Both the position numbers and the translations under genes were made by a program. From Lysinibacillus mangiferihumi (GTDB lineage: Bacteria > Bacillota > Bacilli > Bacillales_A > Planococcaceae), in assembly GCF_003049665.1 (NCBI RefSeq), contig NZ_PYWM01000004.1, positions 1 to 64,000 of the forward strand: a stretch of 64,000 nt of DNA, read 5' to 3'. Below the pieces are notes generated by a model that did not search any database, was not told where the DNA came from, and saw only the letters and a program-made list of their open reading frames with translations. This document shows positions 21,850 to 42,540 of the stretch, one piece after another; positions within the stretch are counted from its first letter, which is position 1, and each line of letters starts with the position of its first letter.

Positions 21850-23940
21850 TTATTTCCTCAACAATCGGCCCGACAGTAGCATGCCGATGCCACCAATTGA
21901 GATGAAAAGTATTGCGCGTATTAATAAATCGAGTGCGGATAAGTCGAAGAATATCAGCTTTATAAAGGCGATGGCTAATATGATAAAGCCGGAAAGTCGC
22001 AGTATTCGTAAGTGCCGCACTGCGCCAAGCCACAGTGATAGGCTTGCCGTTAGAAAGAGCGTAATTGTTGTTAGTGCAATGCTAAGCTTCCAATCTAGTA
22101 AGTCGTTATAAGCGAGTTGTGACACAAGACCACATACTGCTAGCATCGTACTTACTACACCTATACTAACAATGGCATCTAAAAATTTCGGCATATAGTC
22201 TTGATAGATTCGATAAATACGTCCCTTCATAAGCAAATCAAGGATGATGGCCATAATCGTAGCAATGAAGGTTAACCGTGTCATAATATTGAGCCATTCA
22301 ATCCCTTGTATATTAGAAGGAATAACGTTTAACATAAATGTAAATAACAAGAATAATACAGTCAGCACTGGCGTTAATGCCCGCCCTTTAAATGTTACTG
22401 GTAGCAACAGTGACCCTACAAACAACAATACAATGCTGATACTCATTAGATGTGGGGTATTACTAGCACTTACAATATAAACACTATCCAGCTTGCCTAT
22501 ATAAGCGATAAAGTAACTAGCTGTAATAACTGCTAATAAATCGAGCACATATAAATCTTTCATTAATTTCTCAAAGGCATTTAATGTTTCTTTACGACGT
22601 ATGGCATACATATAAATAATGAAGAGATATACCCCTGGCATCAATAAAGCGAGATGTTCTATACTAAAAAATGGAGTTGGCTCGTGTATGACAAAGCTAA
22701 TCATAAGTGCAATGAAAAATCCTACTGAACTGACAACTTTCATCACACTTGCTCGAAGTCGTAAGCTCATCATAACGCCTGCAAATAGTATGAATGGAAG
22801 AAGTAAATCATCCACTTTTTCAGGGATATTCATAATCAATAACGTATTACAAAGAGTAATAAATGCGAGTGTTACGGCACTATCAAATGCCTCCTGCCAT
22901 TTTTGCTTATAGCCATAACCCGCTATAACTATAAATAACATACATAAACCAAACAGTAGGAGCTCTTTATAGTCAAGTGGACTACTTATCAAGTTCATCA
23001 TTAGTAAGCTAAAGACCCCTAAACTAAATTGCAGTCCAACATAAATGTGCTTCCATTTCGATTCAGCATTATACAAGCGACACCAACTCGTGTAGAAAAT
23101 AGCAAGTGTCATGAACAAACCTAATGCAAACATTCCTTGATTATCATTATTCATAAAGGCGACAATACCAATTGCCAAAATTGAGAAAAAAGTAGCGACA
23201 TAAAGCGCAATGTTTTGTTTATGTTGCAGAATAACAAATTGCAACATTGTAAACAGGACAATGACAAAGAATAATATAATGTATGCGCTAAAATCCATAT
23301 ATTCTAGTAAATACGGTAATAACAATGAAGTAAAGGCGACAAATAAAGTAAGCACCTCATTTTTCTTTAGATAGCTGATTGCTATGCCATAGCCAATAAA
23401 TAGGATGGCAATAAACAATGCTAATGTTAAGCCCAATACATCGTATAGCATAGCACCAGCAGCAGTAGTTAAAATACCTACGATAAATGCCCCTCCGTAT
23501 AAGGAAATGGTTACGGCTGGTGACCCTAGCTTTTTATGTTCTACTACATAGGCTATGGTTGCTAATACGATGGATAATAAATAAGCGAGGATGATTTTCA
23601 CCTCGTTTGATAGGTAGCCATAATCACTAACTAGTTTTAACCCCCATAACACGCCCAATACTAAAATAACCATAAATACTTTCGGAAGCGCCCACATAAT
23701 TTGCTCTTCGATTGAACGCCCTTGTTGTACATTTGTTTTTGCTGTTGGGATTGGCGAAATTGGTGGCGTTGGCTTAGCTTTTGCGATTGGTAAGGCAGAT
23801 TGGCCAGTGATGGATTTGTTGATGTTTTGTATCGTTGTCTTTTCTTGTGACTGTTGGTGCTTTAACTCATCCATTTCCCGCCGTAACGCTACCATCTCTT
23901 TTTCTAGCTTAGCAATTCGCTGCTCCATTTCTAGCGACAA
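21850..23940 (-). CDS. Large DUF2339 membrane protein
   Basis: A 696-residue protein with an N-terminal coiled coil (LEMEQRIAKLEKEMVALRRE to about 45), a proline-rich linker (KAKPTPPISPIPTAKT) and then about 20 closely packed hydrophobic segments to the C-terminus. This is the DUF2339 layout. The family has no assigned biochemical role. The start is a TTG at 23940 with GGGGG 8 bases upstream. It is the only gene of its transcription unit. Confidence 0.85.
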   Translation of the reverse strand: MSLEMEQRIAKLEKEMVALRREMDELKHQQSQEKTTIQNINKSITGQSALPIAKAKPTPPISPIPTAKTNVQQGRSIEEQIMWALPKVFMVILVLGVLWGLKLVSDYGYLSNEVKIILAYLLSIVLATIAYVVEHKKLGSPAVTISLYGGAFIVGILTTAAGAMLYDVLGLTLALFIAILFIGYGIAISYLKKNEVLTLFVAFTSLLLPYLLEYMDFSAYIILFFVIVLFTMLQFVILQHKQNIALYVATFFSILAIGIVAFMNNDNQGMFALGLFMTLAIFYTSWCRLYNAESKWKHIYVGLQFSLGVFSLLMMNLISSPLDYKELLLFGLCMLFIVIAGYGYKQKWQEAFDSAVTLAFITLCNTLLIMNIPEKVDDLLLPFILFAGVMMSLRLRASVMKVVSSVGFFIALMISFVIHEPTPFFSIEHLALLMPGVYLFIIYMYAIRRKETLNAFEKLMKDLYVLDLLAVITASYFIAYIGKLDSVYIVSASNTPHLMSISIVLLFVGSLLLPVTFKGRALTPVLTVLFLLFTFMLNVIPSNIQGIEWLNIMTRLTFIATIMAIILDLLMKGRIYRIYQDYMPKFLDAIVSIGVVSTMLAVCGLVSQLAYNDLLDWKLSIALTTITLFLTASLSLWLGAVRHLRILRLSGFIILAIAFIKLIFFDLSALDLLIRAILFISIGGIGMLLSGRLLRK

Positions 23941-24033
23941 TTCATCATCCCCCTTAGCGATTAGAATTTTCTTACATTATACCACATTCACTTTTATTGT
24001 AAAATTACACTTTTTTATAACTGTAATTAAATT

Positions 24034-24285
24034 TTATCGAGGTTTTCGATACATTAAGGCACGTTCACTATCACTGGTACCACTCGTAGTCGGATCGACA
24101 ACAACCCCCATTAAAACAAGAATCGATAACACTGTATTCAAAATGGACGTTAGTTGCTCACTCATTGCACTTGTTAAATCATAACCAAACAAGGCGCCCA
24201 CTTGTTGAGCGAGTAGTAACAGCATGGAAAATAAAGCTAATAAAAACGGCTTATGCATGAATCGAATCTTCCAGTTAATTCTCAT
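24034..24285 (-). CDS. Phage holin (phiLC3 type), isolated
   Basis: An 83-residue protein with MRINWKIRFMHKPFLLALFS, a second hydrophobic segment and GVVVDPTTSGTSDSERALMY, the signature end of phiLC3/phi11-type holins. Such proteins make membrane holes that release endolysin. GAGGTGAG precedes the ATG. No endolysin, tail gene or other phage gene lies nearby, so it is a prophage leftover or a domesticated gene. Confidence 0.85.
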   Translation of the reverse strand: MRINWKIRFMHKPFLLALFSMLLLLAQQVGALFGYDLTSAMSEQLTSILNTVLSILVLMGVVVDPTTSGTSDSERALMYRKPR

Positions 24286-24724: not shown

Positions 24725-25405
24725 TTACCATATATCAATATTGTCAAAAGAAACAATGGAAATCGGTTCTTTCGATAACTGCTTGGAACACAAGGCAACG
24801 ATATGACAATCATCTAAATCAAACAATTGAAAGCTATACTTTTGTGACAGTTGGTTGCTTTCATACAATTGTATTGTTTCAGGTTGAATGCAAAACGAAA
24901 AAGAATCAAGTGGAATAGTCAATCCTTTTCCCTCAGCTTTTATATAACTTTCTTTCAATGTCCAAAGTTTATAAAAATACTGTATTTGTTTGTCTTTTGG
25001 TCGACTTAAAATATCTTGATACTCACTGCTTGTAAAATAGGCTTTTGCAATGTCCATCTCTATCGTTGTTACTTGTTCTATATCTATTCCAATAGGCGTA
25101 TCACTTACTGCACATACAACCCAGTTACCTGAATGCGCCAAATTAAAATGAATATGGTCGAAATTTTGAAGATTAGGCTTACCATATTCATTGATAGTGA
25201 AATGAATCTGGTCATTTGTCATGCCAAAGTCCCTCTTTAAAGAATGACGCAGAAGAACTTCTGCCAATATAGAGCGCTTTTTATCTTCATCAAAGTGAAA
25301 TTTGCTTACTTTTTCTTTTCTTTCAGCAGATATCCTTAGCTCAAATTGTTGGAAAATATCTTGATACGCTTTTTCTGTTATTTTTATTGCATATTTATAG
25401 ATCAT
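24725..25405 (-). CDS. Sfp-type 4'-phosphopantetheinyl transferase
   Basis: The enzyme loads carrier domains of non-ribosomal peptide and polyketide synthetases with phosphopantetheine from coenzyme A. The 226-residue protein has the family motifs PIGIDIEQV (metal-binding Asp), FNLAHSGNWVVCAVS and LWTLKESYIKAEGKGL. The length matches Sfp rather than the short AcpS type. It is the last gene of a block with two exporters and a ComX/ComP/ComA system, yet no synthetase gene is in the window. Confidence 0.93.
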   Translation of the reverse strand: MIYKYAIKITEKAYQDIFQQFELRISAERKEKVSKFHFDEDKKRSILAEVLLRHSLKRDFGMTNDQIHFTINEYGKPNLQNFDHIHFNLAHSGNWVVCAVSDTPIGIDIEQVTTIEMDIAKAYFTSSEYQDILSRPKDKQIQYFYKLWTLKESYIKAEGKGLTIPLDSFSFCIQPETIQLYESNQLSQKYSFQLFDLDDCHIVALCSKQLSKEPISIVSFDNIDIW

Positions 25406-25493
25406 GATTGTGCTCCATATAAATTTTAATAGTGCTAGTCTTTGGATTTCACTTTATAGTATAATTTTGCAACAAGAAATACAAAAGCGTAAA

Positions 25494-26297
25494 TTACTTG
25501 GCCATCTTCTCTTCACCCTTGTTGCTATAAGTATCGGTACTTTCCACTATCCATTTCATAATGCTTTCTTCTCTTTCCTTAATATTGTCAACCTTCGCAT
25601 CAAATTTATTCATTTTCTTAGAAGCGACAATTTTTCCATCTACCATAAATAGAACTCTTTCAGTTTTTGCAGCAACTTTTGCATCATGTGTTACCAGCAT
25701 AACTGTTGTACCTTTTTTATTGATTTCTGTTAAAAGTGACATAATTTCTGTCGCTGATTTAGAATCTAATGCGCCTGTCGGTTCATCTCCAAATAGAATA
25801 TCTGGATCATTAATTAATGCCCTACATATCGCGACCCTTTGTAACTGGCCCCCTGAAGCTTGATTAATATTATTATTTTCAAGCGCTGCAATTCCAGTCA
25901 TTTCTAGTAATTTTTTTGCTCTTTTATATACTTTATTTTTATCTGCATCTTTGGATACAAGCGCAGGGAACATAACATTATCAATTAACGAGAGGTTTTT
26001 TAAAAGATTTATATTTTGGAATATAAAACCCATATTATTTAATCGGATCTTCGCTAGATTTTCTTCTTTTAGTTTGCCGATCTCATTCCCTTTAAAAAGT
26101 ACATCGCCAGAGGAAATTCGATCCATACCACTTACATTATATAAGAGTGTTGATTTTCCACTGCCTGATGGACCCATTACGGCTACAAATTCTCCCTCTT
26201 TAATTTCTAGATTTACATCTTTTAAAATATGCAGTTCATTGTTTTTTCCTAATTCTACTATTTTATTAATTCTTGTCGCCTCTAAAATGTTATTCAT
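25494..26297 (-). CDS. ABC exporter ATP-binding subunit (MacB/LolD/BceA type)
   Basis: A 267-residue ATPase with Walker A GPSGSGKSTLL (about 42-52), signature QASGGQLQRVAICRAL, Walker B DILFGDEPTGALD and switch VTHDAK. About 40 residues extend past the ATPase core (from KKMNKFDAKVDN). Subunits of this type power FtsX/MacB permeases that extract peptides or antibiotics from the membrane. GGAGG precedes the ATG, and the permease gene lies 33 bases upstream. Confidence 0.9.
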   Translation of the reverse strand: MNNILEATRINKIVELGKNNELHILKDVNLEIKEGEFVAVMGPSGSGKSTLLYNVSGMDRISSGDVLFKGNEIGKLKEENLAKIRLNNMGFIFQNINLLKNLSLIDNVMFPALVSKDADKNKVYKRAKKLLEMTGIAALENNNINQASGGQLQRVAICRALINDPDILFGDEPTGALDSKSATEIMSLLTEINKKGTTVMLVTHDAKVAAKTERVLFMVDGKIVASKKMNKFDAKVDNIKEREESIMKWIVESTDTYSNKGEEKMAK

Positions 26298-26330
26298 ATC
26301 TATTCCTCCATTGCATCGTCTTTCTGCTTC

Positions 26331-28685
26331 TTAACCCTTTAAAATAACAGATAAATCATCTTTTACAGTTACTTTACAGCACACAGTGATCGTGATACCA
26401 ACTACTACTATTAATGCTAAAGGACATAGTAGCCAAGTTTGCCATGCAACGTTTACTAACTCTATTTTCGCAGCGCCCATAGAAGACATCCCCATACTTA
26501 CAAGATACTCTCCTAAGTAATTCGAAACTAGTACACCTAAGAAAATTCCTATTATTAGTACTAGTAGTGTTCCAGCCATATATTGTTGTTTAATATTATT
26601 GGCTGTTAATCCCATACTGCGCATAATAGCGATTTGAGACATATCTTTTGATAATAACATTCTCAAGAATAGGGCTGTAATTAAAACAATAATGATTAAT
26701 GAAATGGCAATTCCACCGATAACAACCGTACTCATTTGACCAATAATATTGCCAAGCGTTTGCTGAGTATATTCTTTAATATCATTGACCTGTGCAGAGG
26801 CATATTGGCTTTGATAATATTCCATTTTTTCTGGAATATTGACATCTTTAGCCACATCCATGTTCACTATATACCAAAGAATCGCATTTTCATTTAGTTC
26901 AAGACTTGTTGTGGCCTTTGCCGTTTTCCCGCCATTTGTAATATCTTGATAGATACCACTTACTGTCATCTTCTTCTCTGCTCCAGCAACCTTTACGATT
27001 ACCGTATCTCCGACTTTTTTATCTAATCCATCTTTAGAGGCATTCGCATAAGATAGAGCAATTTCTCCATCCTCTTTCGGCGCATTTCCCTCCAAATAAC
27101 TTAGTGGAAATACTGAAAAATCACCGGTTTCAATATTTATATAATCCCATGCACCTTCTGCATTTTTAACCTGAAACGAGCCTGTAATATAAGCAGCGTA
27201 TTTTTCAATATCTGGATCATTTGCTAACTCTTCTTGCAATTTTTTATAATCTTCTGTAATCGTATCTGTTTTTCGAAGGTCAATCCTCATATCAGATTTC
27301 CCTACACCCATATAAGTAGAGAATTCCGGTGAATTCATCGTATTATATACATTTATTGGAAGTATGATAATAAATGTACAGATAACAAATATAACGATAA
27401 GTAATCTATATAATTTGAAACGCTTAAATACATCTCGAATACCCATATAAATATTGGTACTGAAAAATTTATTTTTTAGCAGGGAGAAGCTATATTTCTT
27501 ATTCTTACCGCGTTGCATAATATCTGAACGTAGTGCTTCTACAGCAGAAATCTTATCAATTCGTTTTAGCACTTTCTTGAAGTACAACGTAATGATGAAA
27601 TAAACAAATAATGGCGCTATAAGAGAAAGTGCATATTTCAAGTTACCTGATAAATCAGAAGATATGTAAAGTCTCATATTCCCCGTAAACAGATTAACAA
27701 CTACAAAGGACAGTAAATATCCCACAATACCTGCAACTACAGAAATAGCTCTATACTTATTAAGATATACCTTTTTAATATCTTTCTTAGAGATTCCGAT
27801 CGCTTTCATTACACCGATTTCTCTTAAATCCTCATCAATCGTTGCTAAGAATGTCAGTCGAATACAAAGCGATGCAATAATAATAAGCAAAATACTAATC
27901 AGTATAATAACCATCGCTACAATCGTATCTGACATTGCATTAAATATTAAGAATATTTTTCCGCCAACTGTAGGTCCATTTGCCGGAAGACCTGCATCAA
28001 TATATGCTGTCTGAACAGCTTGAGCATCGCCAGTCTCATGTAGTTTGAATTGAATTAAATATTCGCGTTCGCCTACTTGATTTACCAACATTTCATTATA
28101 ATCAGATTGATTGATAACAAAACGTTTTGACGAAGTAAGCGAAGAATTCATCTCATAATCTCGGGCATAATCTGAAATGGTAAATTCCTTTTCATAATCG
28201 CCTCTTTTCACCGTAATCGTTTCGCCAACTTTTAAGTTATATTGCTGCATAAAATAAATAGGAACAGCTACAGTCCCTTCTTTTACGTCCAACTTATTGT
28301 TGTTTAGATCCAATATATAATCAAAACTTTTATTTTGAACAACAAATGATATGTCCTGTACAGTACCTGCCATTGTATTGTTGTTTCCAAAATGTATATT
28401 ATTTCCATCTAAAGTGAGAAGAACCATCGTTTCCTGCATAGCAATATGTTCACGTTGTTCTTCTGTAAATTTATCAATATCTCGCTGATTATAATCTCCT
28501 GCATGCATCTGCGTGATATCGGCTGGGTGTGCTCTTTCTTGCAGTTCTGACATTGACTGCGTTAAATTTGCAATGATATTTGTTGCACTAGCTCCTAAAA
28601 TTACTGCCATCGTTATAAAAATAAATATTGTTGCCGTAACAATTTTCTTTCTGTAGCAATCATTCTTTACCATTTTCAGAAACAA
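26331..28685 (-). CDS. FtsX-type ABC permease, two FtsX domains
   Basis: A 784-residue permease with an N-terminal membrane segment (about 14-34), a large extracytoplasmic domain and an FtsX block at about 250-380. A further outside domain and a second FtsX block (about 660-775) follow; one block includes IGVMKAIGISKKDIKKVYL and the other IAIMRSMGLTANNIKQQYM. It works with the ATPase at 25494-26297. The start is a TTG at 28685 behind GGAGG. This mechanotransmission type of exporter is common in peptide antibiotic loci. Confidence 0.88.
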   Translation of the reverse strand: MFLKMVKNDCYRKKIVTATIFIFITMAVILGASATNIIANLTQSMSELQERAHPADITQMHAGDYNQRDIDKFTEEQREHIAMQETMVLLTLDGNNIHFGNNNTMAGTVQDISFVVQNKSFDYILDLNNNKLDVKEGTVAVPIYFMQQYNLKVGETITVKRGDYEKEFTISDYARDYEMNSSLTSSKRFVINQSDYNEMLVNQVGEREYLIQFKLHETGDAQAVQTAYIDAGLPANGPTVGGKIFLIFNAMSDTIVAMVIILISILLIIIASLCIRLTFLATIDEDLREIGVMKAIGISKKDIKKVYLNKYRAISVVAGIVGYLLSFVVVNLFTGNMRLYISSDLSGNLKYALSLIAPLFVYFIITLYFKKVLKRIDKISAVEALRSDIMQRGKNKKYSFSLLKNKFFSTNIYMGIRDVFKRFKLYRLLIVIFVICTFIIILPINVYNTMNSPEFSTYMGVGKSDMRIDLRKTDTITEDYKKLQEELANDPDIEKYAAYITGSFQVKNAEGAWDYINIETGDFSVFPLSYLEGNAPKEDGEIALSYANASKDGLDKKVGDTVIVKVAGAEKKMTVSGIYQDITNGGKTAKATTSLELNENAILWYIVNMDVAKDVNIPEKMEYYQSQYASAQVNDIKEYTQQTLGNIIGQMSTVVIGGIAISLIIIVLITALFLRMLLSKDMSQIAIMRSMGLTANNIKQQYMAGTLLVLIIGIFLGVLVSNYLGEYLVSMGMSSMGAAKIELVNVAWQTWLLCPLALIVVVGITITVCCKVTVKDDLSVILKG

Positions 28686-28740
28686 AGCTATTCCTCCTTC
28701 ATCTAACTACACGACTTACCTATTTATTAAATTTTTATTA

Positions 28741-30063
28741 TTAAATTGACTGCTCAGTTGGTATTAGCTCAGTATCTTTTTGTTTTTCCATTTCTCGAAT
28801 ACCTTTAGATTTTGAAACAAATAATGCCGTAATTATTAGTCCTACTCCAGAAAGAATGATTAAAAAACCAATTCCCCTTGTTTCACCAGTACCTATAATT
28901 TTTCCAACAGAATTTGCTAGAATGCCTCCTTCAACTAACGCTGGGTTAAATACGTAATCGGCCAGAACACCTGCAATAACGTAAGCAACGACGAAACCTA
29001 TTTGTGATATTAAAGAAATCAGTCCCCATGCTCTACCTTGCTTCTCATTGTCTATCGATTTTCGTATTAAAACATCAATACATGTCGTTGCAAATGGCAA
29101 TGAAGCAAAGAATAAAAATCCGGAAATAATAATAACTGGGATACTTGTTGTGGCGCCGAATCCTGCCATCGTTATACCAGATACAACGAAACTAACGACC
29201 ATTACTTTCACAAAATTTCTCTTGATAATTCCCGTACCAATCAAAATACTGGATACCATCATACCGCATGCTACAACTGTCTGAAGTATTCCGGTTGTTT
29301 TCTCACTGGCAAATGATAAAATCATCGGTTTTGATAGTACTTGAATAATTCCCATATAGAACATTAAAACGGAAACCAGTACTATAAGAAGCATAACCCC
29401 TTTTGATTCCACAATAATTTGCCAACCTTCTTTTAAATCTTTGAAAAAGTCTAAATCCTTTTTCTCCAAAGGCTTTACCGAAAGCGATTTTCTTACAAAA
29501 AGAATTGTTGAAACTGTTACAGCAAGTGTCAAAATATCAATGATGATAATTAATTCCATACTGTAAAATGCTAAAATTAGACCACCAATAATTGGTGAAA
29601 TCAAAAATTTAGAAGAGGAAGCAATCCCCACCATACCACTTGCCTTTGCATATTCATCCTCTGATAGTAAATCCGTTAGTGTTGCTTTATACGCTGGATC
29701 TAATAATGATGCGAAGGCTGAACTAAATCCTACACAAAGACAGATTTGCCATACTTGAATATTTCCTGTATTCATTAGCACTAATAACAAAATGAGTCCC
29801 AACCCTGAGACACAATCACCAATAATCATAAGGAGTCTTCTGTCAAATCGATCTGCAAGAACTCCTGCAGCCGGACTGAATAAGATCATGGGTAGTAGCG
29901 CTGCCATTTCAACCATAGCAACATCCAATGCGGATTTCGTAAGTTGCCAAACGTATACGCCAAGACCGAAGGCAGTCATACCAGTACCGATATTAGATAT
30001 CAGCTCCCCCATCCAGATGACCAAGAACTTTTTAAATCCTGCATCTGTCTTTACGTCATTCAT
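28741..30063 (-). CDS. MFS exporter (EntS/macrolide efflux-like)
   Basis: A 440-residue major facilitator with 12 predicted segments. MTAFGLGVYVWQLTKSALDV, GVLADRFDRRLLMIIGD (loop 2-3 motif) and ISSSKFLIS-like helices match the MFS_3/EntS group, which exports siderophores and macrolides. GGAGGACT precedes the ATG. It precedes the ABC exporter and lies downstream of comA, which suggests export of a product controlled by that quorum-sensing system. Confidence 0.88.
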   Translation of the reverse strand: MNDVKTDAGFKKFLVIWMGELISNIGTGMTAFGLGVYVWQLTKSALDVAMVEMAALLPMILFSPAAGVLADRFDRRLLMIIGDCVSGLGLILLLVLMNTGNIQVWQICLCVGFSSAFASLLDPAYKATLTDLLSEDEYAKASGMVGIASSSKFLISPIIGGLILAFYSMELIIIIDILTLAVTVSTILFVRKSLSVKPLEKKDLDFFKDLKEGWQIIVESKGVMLLIVLVSVLMFYMGIIQVLSKPMILSFASEKTTGILQTVVACGMMVSSILIGTGIIKRNFVKVMVVSFVVSGITMAGFGATTSIPVIIISGFLFFASLPFATTCIDVLIRKSIDNEKQGRAWGLISLISQIGFVVAYVIAGVLADYVFNPALVEGGILANSVGKIIGTGETRGIGFLIILSGVGLIITALFVSKSKGIREMEKQKDTELIPTEQSI

Positions 30064-30407
30064 AATTCGAGTCCTCCTTCTTTTTAAAATTTACTCCAAT
30101 AATATTTTACAGTTTTAGCCGTTAAATAAAAAATAGTATTTACCACATAATAACTTTTTAACTATAGTTTTACTATAATTTATTAATTTTGAATAACATT
30201 CTTAAAAAACAAAGTAAGAACTTCTCCTATTTGAGAATTTTCCAATATAAATATTCCTTTGAAGTTACATCTAAACCACCAAAACTCGTTATTTAAATTC
30301 TACCAATATATTTACCGTACTTTATAGGGCGGGTTTCCGATTAAAATAATACGGAAAACCACACTTGACATTAAAAAATAAATATTTACACTAGTTGATA
30401 ACAAAGT
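30064..30407. promoter_or_regulatory. Intergenic region upstream of the MFS gene
   Basis: About 345 AT-rich bases separate the exporter operon from the comA terminator. On the minus strand GGTTTTCCG and CGGAAACC form an inverted repeat at about 30330-30360 around a 12-base loop. No clear ComA box (TTGCGG-N4-CCGCAA) was found. A promoter for the exporter block must lie here because a terminator stands between it and comA. Confidence 0.4.
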
Positions 30408-30447
30408 AAAAAAAACGACAAAAACACTTAAACAGTGTTTTGTCGTT
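30408..30447 (-). terminator. Terminator behind comA
   Basis: AACGACAAAACACTG pairs with AGTGTTTTTGTCGTT on the minus strand around a four-base loop, followed by eight T. It lies about 85 bases past the comA stop. Confidence 0.88.
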
Positions 30448-30530
30448 ATAGATGTGTATGAATATTACAAAAATTATTATATTATTAGTAAAAAACGTAT
30501 AATATATAAACATTAATTGATTCTTACTAC

Positions 30531-31178
30531 TTAATTAAAATGATATTTATCCGTTTCTAAAGTAGTTAATTCATTCCATTTAACAGCTGCCTCTGCTCGT
30601 GATTCGACACCAAGCTTAGAAAAAATTGTGCTTAATACTTTCTCTATTGTCCGTTGGCTTAAATGAATTTCTAGTGCAATAGCCTTATTAGTATATCCAT
30701 CTCTGACAAAATCTAAAATTTGTCGTTCTCTCTCTGTCAGATTTATAGAATCTTTAGCTCCAACATTATGTACATACAGCTTTTTAAGAAGCGAAAGTGA
30801 AATAATAACTTTCCCTTCATGTGCATATTGAATTGTATCAATCAATTGTTTTCTACTTTCCGTTTTACTAATAAATCCTGATATCCCCTTGTTTAATAAT
30901 TCGGGTAAATATTTCTCGATATTATAACCTGTATAAATAATCGCAATTGCTTCAGGATGAATTTTAAGTAATTTTTCAATAAATTGCAGTCCATCCATTC
31001 CTGCTAAGTTAAAATCAATTAAGTAGATATCATAAAATGATTCGGATAAGTGCTGTAAAGCAATACAGGGATCTGTAAACACCACTGCTTGACAGTCTAG
31101 TTCAGCTTGCAATATGGCCCGTGTGCCTTCACCAATAGCAATATGATCATCCAATACCATTATTTTCAAAATCCTCAC
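30531..31178 (-). CDS. comA: ComA-like LuxR-type response regulator
   Basis: In B. subtilis ComA activates surfactin synthesis and competence when phosphorylated by ComP. This 215-residue protein has the receiver motifs VLDDHIAIGEGTRAIL, the phospho-aspartate in IYLIDFNLAGMDGL, TGY and ISKTESRKQL (very close to ComA), and the C-terminal helix-turn-helix LTERERQILDFVRDGYTNKA with LSQRTIEKVLSTIFSKLGV. It overlaps the end of comP by 32 bases if the GTG at 31178 is used; the ATG at 31160 is an alternative. Downstream are exporters and Sfp. Confidence 0.85.
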   Translation of the reverse strand: MRILKIMVLDDHIAIGEGTRAILQAELDCQAVVFTDPCIALQHLSESFYDIYLIDFNLAGMDGLQFIEKLLKIHPEAIAIIYTGYNIEKYLPELLNKGISGFISKTESRKQLIDTIQYAHEGKVIISLSLLKKLYVHNVGAKDSINLTERERQILDFVRDGYTNKAIALEIHLSQRTIEKVLSTIFSKLGVESRAEAAVKWNELTTLETDKYHFN

Positions 31179-33387
31179 CTATTTTCATAGATAGTTTAAT
31201 GTTTGTCCCTTGCGGCTGATTTGATCTTATTAAAAATGTCCCCTGATAATACTTTATACGTTCCTTCATTCCCATTAGTCCTATACTTTTCATACAGTCT
31301 TGTTGAATATTTTCATCAATACCAATTCCATCATCCCAATATTCAATAAAAACTTTTTGTGCTCGGGATGTCAATGAAATATAGACGGACTGTGCCTGTG
31401 AATGTTTATTTGCATTGGAGAGCAACTCTTGAATAATACGATAGATTGTAGTGGATTGCTGCAATGATAAACCTTCAATCCTTTGAAAATCCTCTTTAAT
31501 CAAAAAGTTAAACCGAATTTTACATTTCTGTATTAACTCCTCTAACGAGCGGTGTAGACCAAGTCTATCGATTAAAGGCGGATATAAATTTTCACAAATT
31601 TCTCTTGTATTATCCACAATATCCAGTACTTCTTCACGCAAATGCATAAAAGCCTCTTTGTCATCTTGTTCTTTTGTTGCAGCTTCTTCCATATTACGAC
31701 TCATACGAATCAAATCTTGTAAAATCGTATCATGTATCTCTGTAGATAACCGTAAACGTTCTTTCTCTGAAGACAAAATCCATAACCTATTATACCATCG
31801 AGGTGCATGCAATTTGTCTAACTTCGTCAGTTGTGCCATAAGTTCATCCAACTTAAGTGAATTATCGATAATGCTTTGAACATAGTACAAAAATAGTTCA
31901 AGCATTTTTAAAGATTCGGACGGTATTTTACGAAATTTTGTGTCTGTGATTGCTAACAACTTAGAGTCTACTGTTTCATAGAGTACCAATATGTATTTCG
32001 TGTCATGTTTATAAATTAAATTGGGACAAATAACACGACATTTATGTTCTTCTATATAACCAAGAGATTGCGTTAAATTATCTTCTATAATCTCAATATT
32101 ATTCAGCATTAACATTAGATTTAGCTCTTGTTTAATATATTCCATAAGCTTGTCGAAGTTAGTAGCATAATGTGCTGATGATTTAATGAATCGGTAAAAA
32201 TTGGAAAAATTATAGTTCTTTAAAGTACTTAAATAACGAGCATTCCGTACTTCCATACTTTCCTTGTATGACAACAGTAAAATGGAGGAAATAAATGTAA
32301 TCAAAAAATAAAGACTATATATGTAAAACGAGCGTACTTCCTCAAGAGATAGTAAAATAAATGATAACACGAGACTAAATGGAATCGCCAATTGTAAATG
32401 TGAAAACATGCGATTAAGCGCATATTGTAAGTTAACAAAATTTCCTGCCATTTCTAAGTAAATCAGACAAATAGGGACCACTAATAAAAACAACGCCGTC
32501 ACATCTGCTGGTAGAAATGGATGCACATTAAAAATTGTTGGAATTCCATAACATAATACAAACGGTCCAATGCCTAAAAAAAAGATGCAGAATAATGGTT
32601 TGGCATAGTATTTAGTATTGCTTTTAGCTGCGATCATAATATTAATAGCCAGTAAGCAGCATAAAATTAAATATACTGATAGTTCAAATATAGTCTGCAC
32701 TTTAAGTAGATCTTTCATGAAAATCCTCACTATATTCATCACTACAATCGTTATACCGATAACAAAAAAAACATTACGCAACTTTTTTTGAAAAGCATCA
32801 TCCATTGTTCTTAAAAAATAATTACAGTAGAAAATACAATTCACAATGCTAAGGAAGATTGCTAATGAATTAATAACAGTACTAATGAAATCTCCTCGTC
32901 CTGCTGCACCTGCACTTATATAAGCTAATGCTGTAAATTGTAAATGAAAAATCAAATACTGTTTGTTCTTAGTAAGTATTTGTTTAAATAAAAAAAGACA
33001 AAAAGCAGTTGTGATTAAGGTATATAATAATGGCATAATTAACTGCTTTATTAATTGTGCGTTTATATTCTTATTCGACACGATTAACTTTTCCACTTTT
33101 CCTTCATGCCATATTGTTATGCTGTGCGCTTGTGTAATTAGAAAAGGGGATGAAGTATTGGCTGACAGCTTCATCCCATCTAATTCTAAAACTTTCGTAT
33201 AGGGCACTAAATTTTGAGATGCTGCCCAACTTTCCTCTTCAATCTGTTGAATATACCAACTTTGATCTTGTGATTGAACTAGTGTAATCCCAATAATAGG
33301 CCCGTTAACGACAACGGATAAACAATACAATTGTATGAAAAAAGTGAGAAAAAGCGAAATTAAGATATTAGCCTTTTCTTGTTTCAT
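31147..33387 (-). CDS. comP: ComP-like sensor histidine kinase
   Basis: ComP senses the ComX pheromone at the outside and phosphorylates ComA. The protein of about 746 residues has one N-terminal helix, an outside segment with a PDZ-like look (EESWAASQNLVPYTKVLELDG), then about eight membrane segments to residue 370, a linker, and a HisKA_3 kinase module. This carries the acceptor His in LRLSTEIHDTILQDLI, N-box IIQELLSNANKHS and YWDDGIGIDEN. The size and multi-helix input match ComP. The ATG at 33387 lies 4 bases past the comX stop; the frame is open to 33441, but that part overlaps comX. Confidence 0.85.
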   Translation of the reverse strand: MKQEKANILISLFLTFFIQLYCLSVVVNGPIIGITLVQSQDQSWYIQQIEEESWAASQNLVPYTKVLELDGMKLSANTSSPFLITQAHSITIWHEGKVEKLIVSNKNINAQLIKQLIMPLLYTLITTAFCLFLFKQILTKNKQYLIFHLQFTALAYISAGAAGRGDFISTVINSLAIFLSIVNCIFYCNYFLRTMDDAFQKKLRNVFFVIGITIVVMNIVRIFMKDLLKVQTIFELSVYLILCCLLAINIMIAAKSNTKYYAKPLFCIFFLGIGPFVLCYGIPTIFNVHPFLPADVTALFLLVVPICLIYLEMAGNFVNLQYALNRMFSHLQLAIPFSLVLSFILLSLEEVRSFYIYSLYFLITFISSILLLSYKESMEVRNARYLSTLKNYNFSNFYRFIKSSAHYATNFDKLMEYIKQELNLMLMLNNIEIIEDNLTQSLGYIEEHKCRVICPNLIYKHDTKYILVLYETVDSKLLAITDTKFRKIPSESLKMLELFLYYVQSIIDNSLKLDELMAQLTKLDKLHAPRWYNRLWILSSEKERLRLSTEIHDTILQDLIRMSRNMEEAATKEQDDKEAFMHLREEVLDIVDNTREICENLYPPLIDRLGLHRSLEELIQKCKIRFNFLIKEDFQRIEGLSLQQSTTIYRIIQELLSNANKHSQAQSVYISLTSRAQKVFIEYWDDGIGIDENIQQDCMKSIGLMGMKERIKYYQGTFLIRSNQPQGTNIKLSMKIGEDFENNGIG

Positions 33388-33391
33388 ATGT

Positions 33392-33577
33392 TTACGGACG
33401 CCAAAACGTTGCATGCGGATCCTTAAATGTTTTCTTTTCACCGTGTTTAAAGGATTCTACAGTTAAACTTTGCTCTAACTCATTTACATTTAAAAGTGAA
33501 ATTCTATTTTCTTTTAAAAGGTCTAAAATGTTGGGCTTTTTATGAAGATATTGAATGATTTCTAACATGTCCTTCAC
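33392..33577 (-). CDS. comX: ComX-type pheromone precursor
   Basis: A 61-residue peptide starting MKDMLEIIQYLHKKPNILDL and ending DPHATFWRP. ComX precursors are 50-75 residues, poorly conserved except for the N-terminal helix, and carry a tryptophan near the C-terminus that ComQ isoprenylates before release of the last 5-10 residues. Here Trp59 is third from the end, exactly as in B. subtilis 168. The place directly before comP and after a comQ remnant makes the call firm. The probable pheromone is the last 6-10 residues. AAGG precedes the ATG. Confidence 0.85.
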   Translation of the reverse strand: MKDMLEIIQYLHKKPNILDLLKENRISLLNVNELEQSLTVESFKHGEKKTFKDPHATFWRP

Positions 33578-33612
33578 ACCTCTTAAATATATTTTTCGAA
33601 TAGTGATACATC

Positions 33613-34080
33613 TTAGGTTGGATAAATTTCTTTTAGTAATTCAAGTGCAAGATTACGATATTTAGACTGTAATAGATGTATATATAGATAACCCTGAAGC
33701 TCCGATTTGCTGTGGCATAATGCAAATATTCATTGTTGAATCGCCTGCTGACTATAATACAAGCGTAATTCATCCAATGCTGAATCTTCATATTGTAATA
33801 GATACAATATTGGCAATGCTCCTTTTTATGTGAATATTTGTAAGTTTAATGTGTCGCCATAATCATTATTTAACTGAGCAACCATTGCAATATAGTGTGC
33901 ACTCATTTCAAGCTTTTCAATATACTTTCCAGTTGCTAATACTTCTCCGAGTAATAAAGAAATGCAATTTAAATTTTGACTGTTATGTATCCCCGGCATT
34001 AGAGGGATAAATAATAATGGTGATTTCTCTCTTTTACATTAATGGGAAACCCATCTATTTACAATCTGTTTAAGAGCTAA
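33613..34080 (-). pseudogene. comQ: Decayed comQ (isoprenyl transferase for ComX)
   Basis: Upstream of comX the minus strand reads in one frame LLLGEVLATGKYIEKLEMSA, AMVAQLNNDYGDTLNLQIFT, a stop (33826-33828), then ALPILYLLQYEDSALDEL and YYSQQAIQQ, a second stop (33730-33732), then LLQSKYRNLALELLKEIYPT before the end at 33613. NNDYGD stands in the place of the second Asp-rich motif of ComQ/polyprenyl synthases, and the LP-x-LYLLQ segment is typical of ComQ. A further stop lies at 34039-34041, and the N-terminal half with the first Asp-rich motif is not found. The gene is therefore inactive. Confidence 0.75.
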
Positions 34081-34359
34081 TCATTAAATTTGTCATCTAT
34101 GACTCATGACAGTTATCTTTTTTCCAATCATTACTATTATACCTAAAATACTAAAATTGTAAATATATTCATAAATATTAATACCTATTAACAATATAAT
34201 GCATTATATTACATAATTCCGCAACTATAGTTTCATATCTTTTATTAGTAAAAATATAGCAAGAAATTATTTAAGAACATCACTATAAATACTGTACAAA
34301 GATAGGAAATCATAACGAAAATCCATTTTAATACTATAAATCGAAGCACAATTCAGTTA
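34081..34359. other. Gene-free AT-rich stretch upstream of the com locus
   Basis: Very AT-rich sequence without a convincing frame or family signature. It lies where the missing first half of comQ would be, and no further comQ-like reading was recognised here. The decay or deletion therefore probably ends near 34080. Confidence 0.35.
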
Positions 34360-34400
34360 GAAAGGCATCAAGAGTGGATTCCACTTCTTGATGCCTTTTG
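34360..34400. terminator. Strong bidirectional hairpin
   Basis: AAAGGCATCAAGAGTGG pairs with CCACTTCTTGATGCCTTT around a very short loop, with T on the plus side and A on the other. It separates the com region from the repeat element that follows. Confidence 0.8.
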
Positions 34401-34412
34401 TCAATACTCTGA

Positions 34413-34729
34413 GAGGCTGGGATAAAAGAGAAAAGGTGTTAGATTGATGGCAGTCAATCTAACACTTTTTTTGCTGCGCCGTTGTTGTCCGCTTCGGCGG
34501 TGCTTTCCGCTCAGCACAGTAAGCCGCAACCCTCGCTAACGCGCAGAATGCCCGCGTCTTACGCTGTGTGCGTTGTGAGCAGGAGTCACCGCCTCCGCTA
34601 CCCACAACTAGCGAACATTTCTAGTTTTTTATTTATTGCAAAAGCAAGAATAGCTAAGTTCTCCATATAGCAAAATTTTTGAACACCTTTCCTCTGTTCC
34701 TTAAATTTTTTTAGTTATGTCCCAGCCTC
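34413..34729. repeat. MITE-like inverted-repeat element of about 317 bp
   Basis: The ends are GAGGCTGGGATAA (from 34413) and TTATGTCCCAGCCTC (to 34729), inverted copies matching over the outer ten bases. Next to the left end is a perfect hairpin: GTGTTAGATTGA pairs with TCAATCTAACAC (34436-34466), followed by seven T. The core, about 34470-34600, is strikingly GC-rich (CGCTTCGGCGG, CGCTAACGCGCAG) compared with its surroundings. No plausible gene is inside. GAGGCTGGGA-bounded intergenic repeats occur in many Firmicutes; mobility is inferred from the ends. Confidence 0.7.
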
Positions 34730-34751
34730 TTTCTACCATACAAAGTTAGAT

Positions 34752-36188
34752 TTAGTAAGCGCGCGCAAACCAAACTGTATGTTGTGCTTTTTTCCCACAA
34801 TGAATGCAAGTATGCTTTGTAACTGGTGGGTTAAATGGTATATTACGAGTTGTAAATTTTGTTTCTTCTTTTACCTTTTCTTCACACACATCATCTCCAC
34901 ACCAACCCGCTAAAATCCAACCTGGGATTGTTTCATTTTGTTCAGATTGAGCTAAATGCTGTTTTAACTGTTCCATTGAATCGATATGGGTATGGGAGTT
35001 GTTTGCACGGAAAGCTTTTGCTTTTTCAAATAGTCGCGTTTGCATCGTTTCAAGTTCTGTTTCTATGCTTTTAACAATTGTGTCTAAAGAAACAGTTACT
35101 TTTTCTTCTTCATCACGGGCTTTCATTAAGCCTTGCTGATTTTCTAAATCACGTGGCCCCAATTCAATACGCACAGGTACACCTTTTAGCTCCCATTCAT
35201 TAAACTTATAACCAGGTGATTGGTCTGAATCATCAAGACGCACACGAATACCCTTTGCTTTTAACGCTACAAAAATTTCATCTAATTTCTCGATAATCTT
35301 AGGGTTCTTTTTCCACGGACCGACTGGGATTAACACAACTTGCGTTGGAGCGATTCTTGGCGGTAAAACAAGACCTTGTTCATCACCATGCACCATAATA
35401 ACAGAACCGATTAAACGGGTAGACGTTCCCCACGATGTTGTATGCACATGGACATGTTTATTTTCTTTATTTAAATATTTGATATCAAAAGCTTCGGCAA
35501 ATTTCGTACCTAAATAATGAGATGTCCCTGCTTGTACGGCCTTGCCATCCTTCATCATCGCTTCAATGGAAAATGTATCAACTGCTCCAGCAAAACGTTC
35601 TGATGGTGTTTTTTGCCCATCATAGACAGGAATGGCTAATAGTCCTTCGACAACTTCTTTATAAATAGCTAACATTTGCATTGTTTCTTTCCGTGCATCT
35701 TCTTCATCGACATGCGCCGTATGACCTTCTTGCCATAAAAATTCTGAAGTACGGATAAACGGTAGCGTTTTCTTTTCCCAACGGAATACATTGGCCCATT
35801 GATTGATTAAAACAGGAAGGTCTCGATAACTTTTAATCCAATTAGAATACAAATGCCCAATCATTGTTTCCGAAGTTGGGCGTAGCGCTAAACGCTCTTC
35901 TAATTGTTCACCTGCCGCTTCGGTCACCCAAGGAAGCTCTGGTGAAAATCCTTCAATATGATCCTTTTCCTTTTGGAAAAAAGATTCTGGAATGAGCATT
36001 GGGAAGTAGGCATTGCGGTGCCCTGTTTCCTTAAAACGCTTATCCATCTCCGCTTGAATATGCTCCCACAGTTCATAGCCATCTGGTTTAAAGGCAATAC
36101 AACCACGAACCGGCGTATAATCCATTAAATCCGCCTTTTGTATCGTTTCCACATACCATTTTGAAAAATCGTTTGTTTTTTGAGACAT
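34752..36188 (-). CDS. proS: Prolyl-tRNA synthetase, type 3 (ProS)
   Basis: Charges tRNA-Pro with proline. The 478-residue protein is the short archaeal/eukaryotic-like type: DFSKWYVETIQKADLMDY at the start, class II motif 2 VFRWEKKTLPFIRTSEFLWQEGHTAH, LRPTSETMIGHLYSNWIKSY, motif 3-like HGDEQGLVLPP, an anticodon-binding domain (about 285-390), and the zinc-type C-terminal domain with WCGDDVCEEK and CIHCGKKAQHTVWFARAY. Most Bacillales rely on the longer type 1 ProS, so this may be a second copy. A T-box leader lies upstream, pointing to induction when tRNA-Pro is uncharged. Confidence 0.96.
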   Translation of the reverse strand: MSQKTNDFSKWYVETIQKADLMDYTPVRGCIAFKPDGYELWEHIQAEMDKRFKETGHRNAYFPMLIPESFFQKEKDHIEGFSPELPWVTEAAGEQLEERLALRPTSETMIGHLYSNWIKSYRDLPVLINQWANVFRWEKKTLPFIRTSEFLWQEGHTAHVDEEDARKETMQMLAIYKEVVEGLLAIPVYDGQKTPSERFAGAVDTFSIEAMMKDGKAVQAGTSHYLGTKFAEAFDIKYLNKENKHVHVHTTSWGTSTRLIGSVIMVHGDEQGLVLPPRIAPTQVVLIPVGPWKKNPKIIEKLDEIFVALKAKGIRVRLDDSDQSPGYKFNEWELKGVPVRIELGPRDLENQQGLMKARDEEEKVTVSLDTIVKSIETELETMQTRLFEKAKAFRANNSHTHIDSMEQLKQHLAQSEQNETIPGWILAGWCGDDVCEEKVKEETKFTTRNIPFNPPVTKHTCIHCGKKAQHTVWFARAY

Positions 36189-36368
36189 CTTTTTCTCCTC
36201 CTATTTTGAAAAATCTATTTTGCTTTGGCAAAATTGCATCTGATTTTTTTAGAGCCTGCTCAAATAGCTCCTTTTAAAATCTGCGATACCCACCGGGGCA
36301 TTTAACTTAATTTGGCATGCGTCCATATATTTCGTCTTCATCCCCTAGCTAATGCTAAATCAAGTTCA

Positions 36369-36585
36369 TAAAAAAAGCATAAAGCATCCTAATAAAGGAC
36401 GTCTTTACGCTAGTTGACGTGGTACCACCTTAGTTCGGCATAATATGCATATTACGCCCTCTAAACGTTTGTAACGAAACGACTCGGTTAGTTGTTAACT
36501 GACATCTCCGTGGTAGGGTTCAATAAGAAGGGGTGCTATAGCTCTCAGCCTAGGCTATATTTTCTGTTTCACAATTCTTATTTAC
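36369..36585 (-). promoter_or_regulatory. T-box riboswitch upstream of proS
   Basis: On the minus strand the T-box AAGGTGGTACCACG lies at 36431-36418. The terminator is AGCGTAAAGACGTCC with GGATGCTTTATGCT and seven T (36411-36369). At the 5' end AATAAGAA (36582-36575) and TTCTTATT (36529-36522) can close a short Stem I whose 3' side contains ACCCC, which could present a CCC or CCU proline specifier. The T-box and terminator are certain; the specifier reading is an inference. Confidence 0.88.
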
Positions 36586-36618
36586 TTAATCACATCATCG
36601 ATTGTATATGTATACATT

Positions 36619-36647
36619 AATATACCAATTTGCTAAATGTAATTCAA
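36619..36647 (-). promoter_or_regulatory. Promoter of the T-box leader
   Basis: On the minus strand TTGAAT (36647-36642) and TATATT (36624-36619) are 17 bases apart, about 35 bases before the presumed Stem I. Confidence 0.6.
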
Positions 36648-36758
36648 TCATTACGATAGGTCATTGAACGTTAAAATAAATACCAACATTAAAACATTTT
36701 GATGTTTTCATTAAATCAAGTAGAATGAGTTTGAAACACTTATATGAAAGGTGATTAT

Positions 36759-37115
36759 ATGCAACGTCAACTAACAGAAAAATTATGGCGTGAAGAAAAA
36801 TATCGCGTCATGTTCCATAGCCAAAAGCATTACAATCAACTCCGTCTGGCAATGCGCGACATGATGAGCCATGAGCAAATTAAACAATTAATCGAAGTTG
36901 CATTACAACAAACGCCAACTGAAGGCAGCATGCGCAATGCCTGTCAGCATATGTGGGGGTATTTCCGTAAAGTAGCCTCAATAGAAGAAAAACGAACATA
37001 CGAGCAATTGCTTCTTACTTATCAAATACCAGCGCTACTTTGTTTTTTACAACAATTAGCCATTCAATATAACGTTACTTATTTACGTGAAAGTACTATT
37101 TTACAAATACAGTAG
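36759..37115 (+). CDS. DUF1722 (YbgA-like) protein
   Basis: A 118-residue protein with LWREEKYRVMFHSQKHYNQL and a C-terminal LLCFLQQLAIQYNVTYLRES, matching DUF1722, the domain also found at the end of YbgA. The biochemical role is not known. The ATG at 36759 is preferred over 36744 because AAAGGTGA lies just before it. The frame is alone on its strand next to the BRCT gene. Confidence 0.8.
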   Translation: MQRQLTEKLWREEKYRVMFHSQKHYNQLRLAMRDMMSHEQIKQLIEVALQQTPTEGSMRNACQHMWGYFRKVASIEEKRTYEQLLLTYQIPALLCFLQQLAIQYNVTYLRESTILQIQ

Positions 37116-37189
37116 AAGTAGTTATTGCCTCAATGCAAGTCTACAAACAAGCACCCCCCTTACTATCAAGCTCTTAGGAGAGAATCTAT

Positions 37190-37537
37190 ATGAACACAAA
37201 TAAGGACAACAATGACGTTATCTTTCTTACAAATCCAACCGAACGTATAACGCATCCATTTTATAATAAACAAATCGTCTTTACAGGGGCTCTTTCCACG
37301 ATGACACGCGCAGAAGCTGCAAAAAAAGCACGAGCTTGTGGCGGTTTAATGCAAGGGGCTGTGACTAAGGACACAACTTTTGTTATTCTTGGCCAAAACC
37401 GACGAGGCAAAAGCACGAAACATTTAAAAGCAGAGCAACTCATCCAACTTGGATATGACATTCAAATTATTGCTGAAGATGATTTTATTTGGCTTATTTC
37501 CATGCAAAAAGACTATATCCCATCTTCTTTACAATAA
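37190..37537 (+). CDS. Stand-alone BRCT domain protein
   Basis: A 115-residue protein with a BRCT domain over residues 24-105: FYNKQIVFTGALSTMTRAEA, AKKARACGGLMQGAVTKDTT and AEQLIQLGYDIQIIAEDDF. It resembles the C-terminal domain of NAD-dependent DNA ligase but lacks all catalytic parts. BRCT domains bind DNA ends or partner proteins; the partner is unknown. A short gap separates it from the DUF1722 gene, so co-transcription is possible. Confidence 0.85.
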   Translation: MNTNKDNNDVIFLTNPTERITHPFYNKQIVFTGALSTMTRAEAAKKARACGGLMQGAVTKDTTFVILGQNRRGKSTKHLKAEQLIQLGYDIQIIAEDDFIWLISMQKDYIPSSLQ

Positions 37538-37615
37538 CTGCTACCGCGAAATAGCGAACTGCAATAGGTTTGACAATTAACACCGTATAGACGGAACAAA
37601 TGTAATCTCCTACAT

Positions 37616-37666
37616 AAAAACACGTTGACCAGCTGCGCTTCACCGCATCCAATCAACGTGTATTTT
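37616..37666 (-). terminator. Hairpin behind the cyclophilin gene
   Basis: ACACGTTGA and TCAACGTGT pair around a 24-base loop, with T-rich sequence after it on both strands. The long loop lowers confidence. Confidence 0.5.
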
Positions 37667-37676
37667 AATGTGCGTA

Positions 37677-38324: not shown

Positions 38325-38394
38325 TAGTCTTACCACTCCCTATATCAGTTTATTAAAGTATATAACTACGAGATTATTCATCACAACTTTAAAC

Positions 38395-39228: not shown

Positions 39229-39295
39229 TCGACTGCGAATGCCCCTTTCAAACTGATAGGTGCGTATTAAGCTCTTTTCACAACTGAAAAGGTAC

Positions 39296-39334
39296 TAAAA
39301 AAGAACGTGCACCCAACCGATGCTCGTTCTTTGT
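39296..39334. terminator. Hairpin in the gap before the HipA-like gene
   Basis: AAAGAACG and CGTTCTTT pair, with an inner GTGC/GATGC region in the loop and A and T runs outside. It may insulate the divergent phosphoesterase and kinase genes. Confidence 0.55.
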
Positions 39335-39521
39335 TTATGTTGATTTAACTAAATCAAACCTTATGGTAAAACGAATATACGAGTCTACTACCACCACTCC
39401 ATACTGTAAATCATTTTTACTGAAGAAGCCATACATTATTAGCAAAAAACTGCTAATGCTATAGGGATTTGCAGTATCTCTTATGTATAATAGAGGAAAG
39501 TCATATTAAGGACGTGGTACA

Positions 39522-40710: not shown

Positions 40711-40715
40711 TGGAG

Positions 40716-40754: not shown

Positions 40755-40770
40755 GCGATATCGCTATAAA

Positions 40771-42510: not shown

Positions 42511-42540
42511 GAACATCACCTGCTACTAAAAACATTATCA

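What the first reader, a model, noticed from the sequence alone, without database searches (positions are those of the whole stretch)
24725..34080. ComX/ComP/ComA quorum-sensing locus with dead comQ, next to exporters and Sfp but no synthetase
Seen: a 61-residue ComX-like peptide with Trp third from its end, a ComP-size kinase and a ComA-like regulator, then MFS and ABC exporters and an Sfp-type transferase on the same strand. Known: ComQ prenylates ComX, ComA drives surfactin genes and Sfp activates the synthetase. Inference: this is the signalling, export and activation frame of a lipopeptide locus whose synthetase was lost or lies elsewhere.
Basis: partly seen in the sequence, partly recalled or inferred. 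Interest (0 to 1): 0.75.

Follow-up and report, generated by a model that had tools for sequence, protein, structure and literature searches.

The report
Silenced quorum-sensing lipopeptide locus, receiver kept
This Lysinibacillus chromosome lacks the 36-kb synthesis block that two sister species carry at the same spot and has a broken signal-maturing gene, while the sensor, regulator and exporters stay open and conserved, so the cell likely listens to its relatives' signal and would export their product (a predicted lipopeptide) without making either.

Summary
On the minus strand (24725-33577) lie comX, a ComP-type kinase, a ComA-type regulator, then MFS, FtsX, ABC and Sfp-type genes; upstream is a comQ remnant that has lost about its first 157 of 289 codons and carries stops and frameshifts. 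In two sister species (G027, G029) the same site has intact comQXPA and, exactly between comA and the MFS gene, a 36.4-kb block of 14 ORFs (fatty-acyl-AMP-ligase-like, PKS, aminotransferase, NRPS, FkbH, thioesterase). The window has 143 bp there. Two other species (G020, G026) keep only comQ and comX at the site; G026 retains a 57-bp comP scar. On the window branch ComP, ComA, MFS, FtsX and ABC are significantly constrained, whereas comQ remnant, ComX and Sfp cannot be told from neutral drift. I infer a receiver-plus-export remnant of a pheromone-controlled biosynthetic island. Two complete comQXPA loci lie elsewhere in the genome, so maturation of this ComX by a distant ComQ is not excluded. 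Side finding: 33 of 74 comX sites in 32 genus genomes are comX-comP pairs with no comQ or comA nearby. Loss of the block is near certain; the listening function is inferred and untested.

The parts
33586..33981 (-). comQ remnant: matches residues 155-289 of an intact relative's ComQ, with stops and frameshifts; 5' half deleted
   Evidence: 72% identity, 3 stops inside; 720-nt deletion, 1-nt and 2-nt deletions, in-frame stop at a short gap, one nonsense codon
33392..33577 (-). comX, 61 aa (58 aa from the ATG), ends FWRP
   Evidence: PF05952, 21.0 bits, below the 25-bit cut-off; 71-74% identity to G029/G027
31147..33441 (-). ComP-type sensor kinase, 764 aa (746 aa from the ATG at 33387)
   Evidence: HisKA_3, HATPase_c; 95% to G027/G029
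30531..31178 (-). ComA-type response regulator, 215 aa
   Evidence: Response_reg, GerE
30332..30360 (-). inverted repeat GGTTTTCCG-N12-CGGAAACC after comA, kept in the sisters ahead of the synthesis block; candidate regulator site (guess)
   Evidence: the pattern was taken from this very sequence, so the chance figure is not an independent test
30142..30284 (.). 143-bp junction where the sisters have the 36.4-kb block; no convincing match to the block or to genus genomes
28741..30063 (-). MFS exporter, 440 aa
   Evidence: (no NCBIfam cut-off reached)
26331..28685 (-). FtsX-type ABC permease, 784 aa
25494..26297 (-). ABC ATPase, 267 aa
24725..25405 (-). Sfp-type phosphopantetheinyl transferase, 226 aa
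   Evidence: PF01648, PF22624, both over cut-off
34752..36188 (-). left border gene shared with G020, G026, G027 and G029; prolyl-tRNA synthetase-like (name recalled, not searched)
21850..24285 (-). right border: 83-aa and 696-aa membrane-type proteins shared with the same four species (names not searched)

Best explanation
This is the sensing-and-export remnant of a comQXPA-linked PKS/NRPS gene cluster whose synthesis block and comQ this lineage has very likely lost, and it would now work as a receiver: ComP likely senses the ComX pheromone of related producers and, through ComA, is predicted to turn on the remaining exporters. Shown: two sister species carry the complete island at the same site; here the 36.4-kb block is absent and comQ is broken; comX, comP, comA, exporters and Sfp are open. 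Shown by substitution counts: ComP, ComA, MFS, FtsX and ABC are constrained on this branch, while comQ remnant, ComX and Sfp cannot be told from neutral drift. Inferred: deletion rather than gain, loss of own signal, reception of relatives' signal, ComA control of the exporters, and protection from or handling of the relatives' product as the benefit.
For: Exact absence of 36,390 bp relative to G029 between window 30285 and 30141, with both flanks at 94-97%. comQ changes placed on this lineage: 11 nonsynonymous, 1 stop, 0 synonymous; 5 more (3 synonymous, 2 not) unplaced. Window-branch counts, nonsynonymous:synonymous: ComP 21:33, ComA 4:10, MFS 3:7, FtsX 5:21, ABC 2:6 (chance under neutrality 1e-10, 9e-5, 0.0025, 3e-10, 0.0016) against ComX 16:3 (0.71) and Sfp 7:4 (0.14). 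ComX+Sfp against the other five: P 1.4e-5 here, 0.07 on the two sister branches. ComP sensor half dN/dS 0.12-0.14 against the producers. The stretch after comA that precedes the synthesis block in the sisters is kept and now precedes the exporters.
Against: No binding, expression or phenotype was tested. The window branch in a three-way comparison also contains the ancestor of G027/G029; polarised, ComX has only 5:0 certain changes on this lineage. ComX genes vary fast in their C-termini, so drift and a new pherotype are hard to tell apart. ComP here lacks two residues just after DDGIG in the ATPase domain. The production/response grouping was made after seeing the counts. Only one genome of this species was available. 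Two intact comQ genes remain in the genome.
Confidence: 0.5

Rival explanations
1. The circuit still makes its own signal: ComQ from the C48 or C69 locus would modify this ComX in trans, so the locus remains a full quorum-sensing system with other outputs.
For: Two complete comQXPA loci elsewhere. ComX is open and keeps Trp third from the end. In the genus, 33 of 74 comX sites have comP but no comQ nearby, and every one of their 26 genomes has a ComQ gene elsewhere, so maturation at a distance looks usual.
Against: The lost ComQ is only 30-34% identical to the other two. ComX shows no constraint on this branch, while the core ComX of the same three genomes has dN/dS 0.08-0.09. None of the five genomes with this island has a comQ-less comX-comP pair.
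Confidence: 0.2
2. Everything left is decaying and the loss is simply recent; comP, comA and exporters have no present function.
For: comX and Sfp already look relaxed; ComP has a 2-residue gap in the ATPase domain.
Against: Four small lesions lie in 384 nt of comQ remnant and none in about 3,060 nt of comX, comP and comA; chance 1.5e-4 if uniform, a rough figure since the lesion count depends on the alignment. ComP and FtsX constraint is strong.
Confidence: 0.2
3. Exporters and Sfp are kept to serve the other NRPS at C87:225-242 kb, independent of ComP-ComA.
For: The PPTase beside that NRPS is interrupted by an in-frame stop, leaving the window's Sfp-type gene and an AcpS-size gene on C63 as the open ACPS matches (3 matches in all).
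Against: Sfp is the least constrained of the kept enzyme genes here (7:4); comP and comA constraint is not explained.
Confidence: 0.2
4. The block was gained by the ancestor of G027 and G029; the window shows the older state.
For: No remnant of the block was found in the 143-bp junction.
Against: comQ is separately broken here; an Sfp gene and exporters without synthetase would be an odd starting point; G026 keeps a 57-bp scar of comP after comX, so the island was trimmed elsewhere too.
Confidence: 0.04

Closest known systems
comQXPA quorum sensing of Bacillus subtilis, which drives surfactin synthesis
   Same: Gene order comQ-comX-comP-comA on one strand, prenyl-transferase-type ComQ in the sisters, ComX with C-terminal Trp, kinase and GerE-type regulator
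   Different: comQ is broken here; in the sisters the locus is physically joined to its presumed target cluster, which I recall is not so for srfA in B. subtilis
Two comQXPA loci per Lysinibacillus genome (Dogsa et al. 2014, PMC4008528; passages and section 11 read)
   Same: Several comQXPA loci in one genome of this genus
   Different: A third locus here, degraded and tied to a PKS/NRPS island; comQ-less and comP-less derivatives were not in the parts I read
comX genes near lanthipeptide clusters (PMC12715929; passages read)
   Same: ComX gene beside an antimicrobial-type cluster
   Different: That study concerns class II lanthipeptides; here PKS/NRPS, with the cluster missing in one species
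Iturin-type lipopeptide clusters (FAAL-KS-aminotransferase start; recalled)
   Same: Fatty-acyl-AMP-ligase-like domain, KS, class III aminotransferase, NRPS modules in the sisters' block
   Different: Extra FkbH, 3HCDH, acyl-CoA dehydrogenase and ETF genes and more PKS modules; product unknown
Pneumococcal blp loci with non-producing strains that keep sensing and immunity (recalled; only listings seen)
   Same: Works like it: a response and immunity part kept without production
   Different: Unrelated peptides, kinases and products

Membership tests
comQXPA quorum-sensing locus (the window's) | ComX-family peptide with Trp near the C-terminus | tested here: met
   PF05952 E 3e-4 but 21.0 bits, under the 25-bit cut-off; Trp third from the end; aligns with sisters' ComX
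comQXPA quorum-sensing locus (the window's) | Intact ComQ prenyl transferase next to comX | tested here: not met
   Only residues 155-289, 3 stops; so a derivative of the family, not a complete member
comQXPA quorum-sensing locus (the window's) | ComP-type kinase and ComA-type regulator adjacent on the same strand | tested here: met
   HisKA_3, HATPase_c, Response_reg, GerE; adjacent, minus strand
comQXPA quorum-sensing locus (the window's) | Signal is modified, secreted and sensed | not testable with these tools
   Needs mass spectrometry and reporters
Lipopeptide PKS/NRPS cluster (sisters G027, G029) | Fatty-acyl-AMP-ligase-like starter, KS/AT modules, condensation and adenylation domains, carrier domains, thioesterase | tested here: met
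   the AMP ligase models are matched below their NCBIfam cut-offs
Lipopeptide PKS/NRPS cluster (window) | Synthetase genes at the locus | tested here: not met
   36.4 kb absent; condensation domains only at C87:225-242 kb and C129
Sfp-type PPTase | PF01648 over cut-off in a protein of about 220-230 aa with the Sfp-type N-terminal domain | tested here: met
   73.6 and 56.6 bits; enzyme activity not tested

The most novel reading that the evidence does not exclude
One signal-plus-weapon island has broken into three social roles in sister Lysinibacillus species: full producers (G027, G029: comQXPA, synthetase, exporters), a listener with exporters but no voice or weapon (this genome), and signal-only senders (G020, G026: comQ and comX intact under constraint, dN/dS 0.16-0.17, with comP and the rest gone). 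It would be a natural set of producer, eavesdropper and decoy, in a genus where one ComQ may also serve many comX-comP pairs from a distance.
Probability: 0.3. Interest if true: 0.82.

Novelty: new variant of a known kind. Interest (0 to 1): 0.62.

Why it matters
Theory predicts listeners, cheaters and false signallers in quorum sensing, but natural comQXPA examples seem scarce: a 2018 review states that no quorum-sensing-deficient B. subtilis isolate had been found (PMC6334282, passages read). Here sister species at one chromosomal site show the whole system, the response half and the signal half, each with substitution evidence for what is kept. That makes listening by non-producers, and sending by non-listeners, directly testable with made or purified pheromone. 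It also points to a 36-kb PKS/NRPS cluster in G027 and G029 with its own pheromone switch, whose product I could not name.

Tried and rejected
Rejected: that the block moved within the genome. The other large NRPS (C87:225-242 kb) is 22-33% identical to the block's proteins and the block's ETF-beta finds only a 30% match.

Led nowhere: the origin of the 143-bp junction. A 171-base query in 32 genus genomes gave, apart from itself, only matches of 23-49 bases; no match to the G029 stretch beyond its own flanks.

Rejected: that the site is a fixed feature of the genus. In nine named Lysinibacillus loci around the right-border gene (L094-L102, 10 kb each side) no proS-like, ComQ, ComX, MFS or Sfp match was found at E 1e-8; two loci have weak 26-29% ComP-, ComA- or ABC-like matches.

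Not decided: whether the inverted repeat at 30332-30360 is a ComA site. A promoter scan of 30040-30560 gave 6 sites against 4.1 expected and no terminator.

Led nowhere: other strains of this species. The ComX profile search returned 12 proteins; only the window's own has this C-terminus. Of the 11 others read, 7 end in YWRA, the G020/G026 type.

Literature limits: seven searches over open-licence papers; I saw listings, and opened four papers by passages (PMC4008528 also section 11; PMC9867215, PMC12715929, PMC6334282). PMC9867215 names a supplementary table on quorum-sensing clusters in its strains that I could not read. A listing also showed B. subtilis quorum-sensing mutants arising with a fungus (PMC7661731), so signal mutants as such are not new.

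Full report
WHAT IS THERE. The window is G000:C87:1-64000 of a 5.31-Mb draft genome in 138 contigs; relatives found with the right-border protein are named Lysinibacillus. On the minus strand lie comX (33392-33577), a ComP-type kinase (31147-33441), a ComA-type regulator (30531-31178), an MFS exporter (28741-30063), an FtsX permease (26331-28685), an ABC ATPase (25494-26297) and an Sfp-type transferase (24725-25405). ComX scores 21.0 bits to PF05952, under the 25-bit cut-off, and has Trp third from its end.

comQ IS DEAD. A relative's intact ComQ (289 aa) matches here only as residues 155-289, with three stops. Against G029, 720 nt are replaced by 24 nt, taking DNA upstream and about the first 157 codons. 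The rest shows, in the alignment with four relatives, a short gap with an in-frame stop, a 1-nt and a 2-nt deletion and a nonsense codon; a pairwise alignment splits the gaps a little differently. Changes placed on this lineage are 11 nonsynonymous, 1 stop and 0 synonymous; 5 more (3 synonymous, 2 not) cannot be placed.

THE SYNTHETASE WAS HERE, VERY LIKELY. I searched 32 genus genomes, own included, with the window's ComP. All have ComP-like matches, but only G027 and G029 have an orthologue (95%); the next best are about 27-31% (listing capped, best first). In both, the same site beside the proS-like gene holds intact comQ-comX-comP-comA, then 14 ORFs of 60 aa or more, then the same MFS-FtsX-ABC-Sfp and right border (the ORF list was made for G029, and the two genomes align through the block at 96%). 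Window 30285 corresponds to position 9469 and window 30141 to 45860 of the joined G029 stretch: 36,390 bp are absent here, with 143 bp instead. In G029 the block encodes a 3HCDH protein, a 104-aa protein that I read as a carrier protein by eye (no family match at the thresholds used), FkbH (TIGR01686, over cut-off), an acyl-CoA dehydrogenase, two ETF subunits, a 2510-aa AMP-ligase-KS-AT-DH-KR-PP-binding protein, a 948-aa KS-AT protein, a 664-aa PP-binding and class III aminotransferase protein, a DUF6790 protein, a 3567-aa protein (2 condensation, 2 AMP-binding, 2 KS, 1 AT, 3 PP-binding matches), a 1920-aa PP-binding-condensation-AMP-binding protein, an unassigned 276-aa protein and a thioesterase. 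A lipopeptide with a polyketide part is predicted. Reading the FkbH group as supply of an unusual extender unit is recalled knowledge.

SIGNAL-ONLY RELATIVES. G020 and G026 have intact comQ and comX at this site and then, within about 700 bp, the right border. G026 keeps a 57-bp match to comP (84%, ComP residues 67-85) just after comX; G020 shows none. Between G020 and G026, comQ has dN/dS 0.16 and comX 0.17; comQ between the producers has 0.16. Neither has a condensation-domain match at E 0.001.

WHAT IS KEPT HERE. Changes by branch among window, G027 and G029, gaps and three-state sites left out, the window branch including the ancestor of the other two, nonsynonymous:synonymous: ComP 21:33, ComA 4:10, MFS 3:7, FtsX 5:21, ABC 2:6, against ComX 16:3 and Sfp 7:4. 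The chance of so few nonsynonymous changes under neutrality is 1e-10, 9e-5, 0.0025, 3e-10 and 0.0016 for the first five, and 0.71 and 0.14 for ComX and Sfp. ComX plus Sfp against the other five gives P 1.4e-5 on this branch and 0.07 on the two sister branches together; the grouping was made afterwards. Polarised with G020/G026, ComX has 5:0 on this lineage, 6:2 on the G027/G029 ancestor and 5:1 unplaced. Four small lesions in 384 nt of comQ and none in about 3,060 nt of comX/P/A has a chance of 1.5e-4 if uniform, a rough figure. Against: ComP lacks two residues after DDGIG.

MECHANISM. The most economical reading: ComP still senses the pheromone of producer relatives (sensor half 23-24 nonsynonymous changes in 400 codons against them, dN/dS 0.12-0.14), ComA responds, and the exporters come on. 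The stretch after comA, with the inverted repeat GGTTTTCCG-N12-CGGAAACC, precedes the synthesis block in the sisters and the exporters here. That ComA binds it is a guess. The benefit would be protection from, or handling of, the relatives' product. None of these steps was tested.

RIVALS. Two complete comQXPA loci on C48 and C69 could mature this ComX in trans. A genus survey lends weight: of 74 comX matches with E below 0.01 in 32 genomes (rows at E 0.11 or worse dropped), 33 have comP but neither comQ nor comA (tblastn E 1e-5) within 2 kb upstream and 4.5 kb downstream. They lie in 26 genomes, 25 of which have a comQ-bearing locus in the survey; the 26th, G016, has a ComQ-like gene elsewhere. 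All 33 have Trp second (31) or third (2) from the end, and 29 of 33 ComP frames exceed 700 aa. But none of the five island-bearing genomes has such a pair, the lost ComQ is 30-34% identical to the other two of this genome, and their ComP genes lie far from the island's in the tree. Sfp may be kept for the other NRPS, whose neighbouring PPTase is interrupted, but Sfp is weakly constrained.

KNOWN AND NEW. Two comQXPA loci per Lysinibacillus genome are known (PMC4008528), and comX near lanthipeptide clusters is reported (PMC12715929). In the listings of seven searches and the passages read I saw no comQXPA-linked PKS/NRPS island, no such break-up and no comQ-less comX-comP pairs; the library holds open-licence papers only. 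I rate it a new variant of a known kind.

Noticed in passing
loci L103-L169 (stretches of G001-G031): 33 of 74 comX sites in the genus survey are comX-comP pairs without comQ or comA nearby, all with Trp second or third from the end of ComX; they suggest shared ComQ and ComA acting at a distance.
   Followed up: partly
L084 8264-9324 and L085 8650-9710: G026 and G020 keep intact comQ and comX without comP, comA or exporters at the island site; both genes look constrained.
   Followed up: partly
L017 109-5819: The C69 comQXPA locus lies divergent from genes with chorismate-binding, glutamine amidotransferase, chorismate mutase and prephenate dehydrogenase domains, so a second comQXPA locus may border a shikimate-derived metabolite cluster.
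   Followed up: partly
L019/L020, G000:C87 about 225-245 kb: Another NRPS (1367 and 4231 aa) lies on the same contig, beside a PPTase gene interrupted by an in-frame stop.
   Followed up: partly
L154 and L155 (G015, G006): Two ComX peptides carry an extension after the Trp, which is tenth from the end.
   Followed up: no
G000:C53:71781-73937: A further ComP-like kinase (735-aa frame) with no ComX match nearby; frames of similar length occur in several relatives.
   Followed up: no
window 34431-34613: A stretch near the comQ deletion recurs at 87-89% identity elsewhere in the G029 and G027 stretches, perhaps a small dispersed repeat.
   Followed up: no
L132 2737-4186: In G012 a comP of a comQ-less pair is split by a 398-aa transposase-like gene (name recalled).
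   Followed up: no
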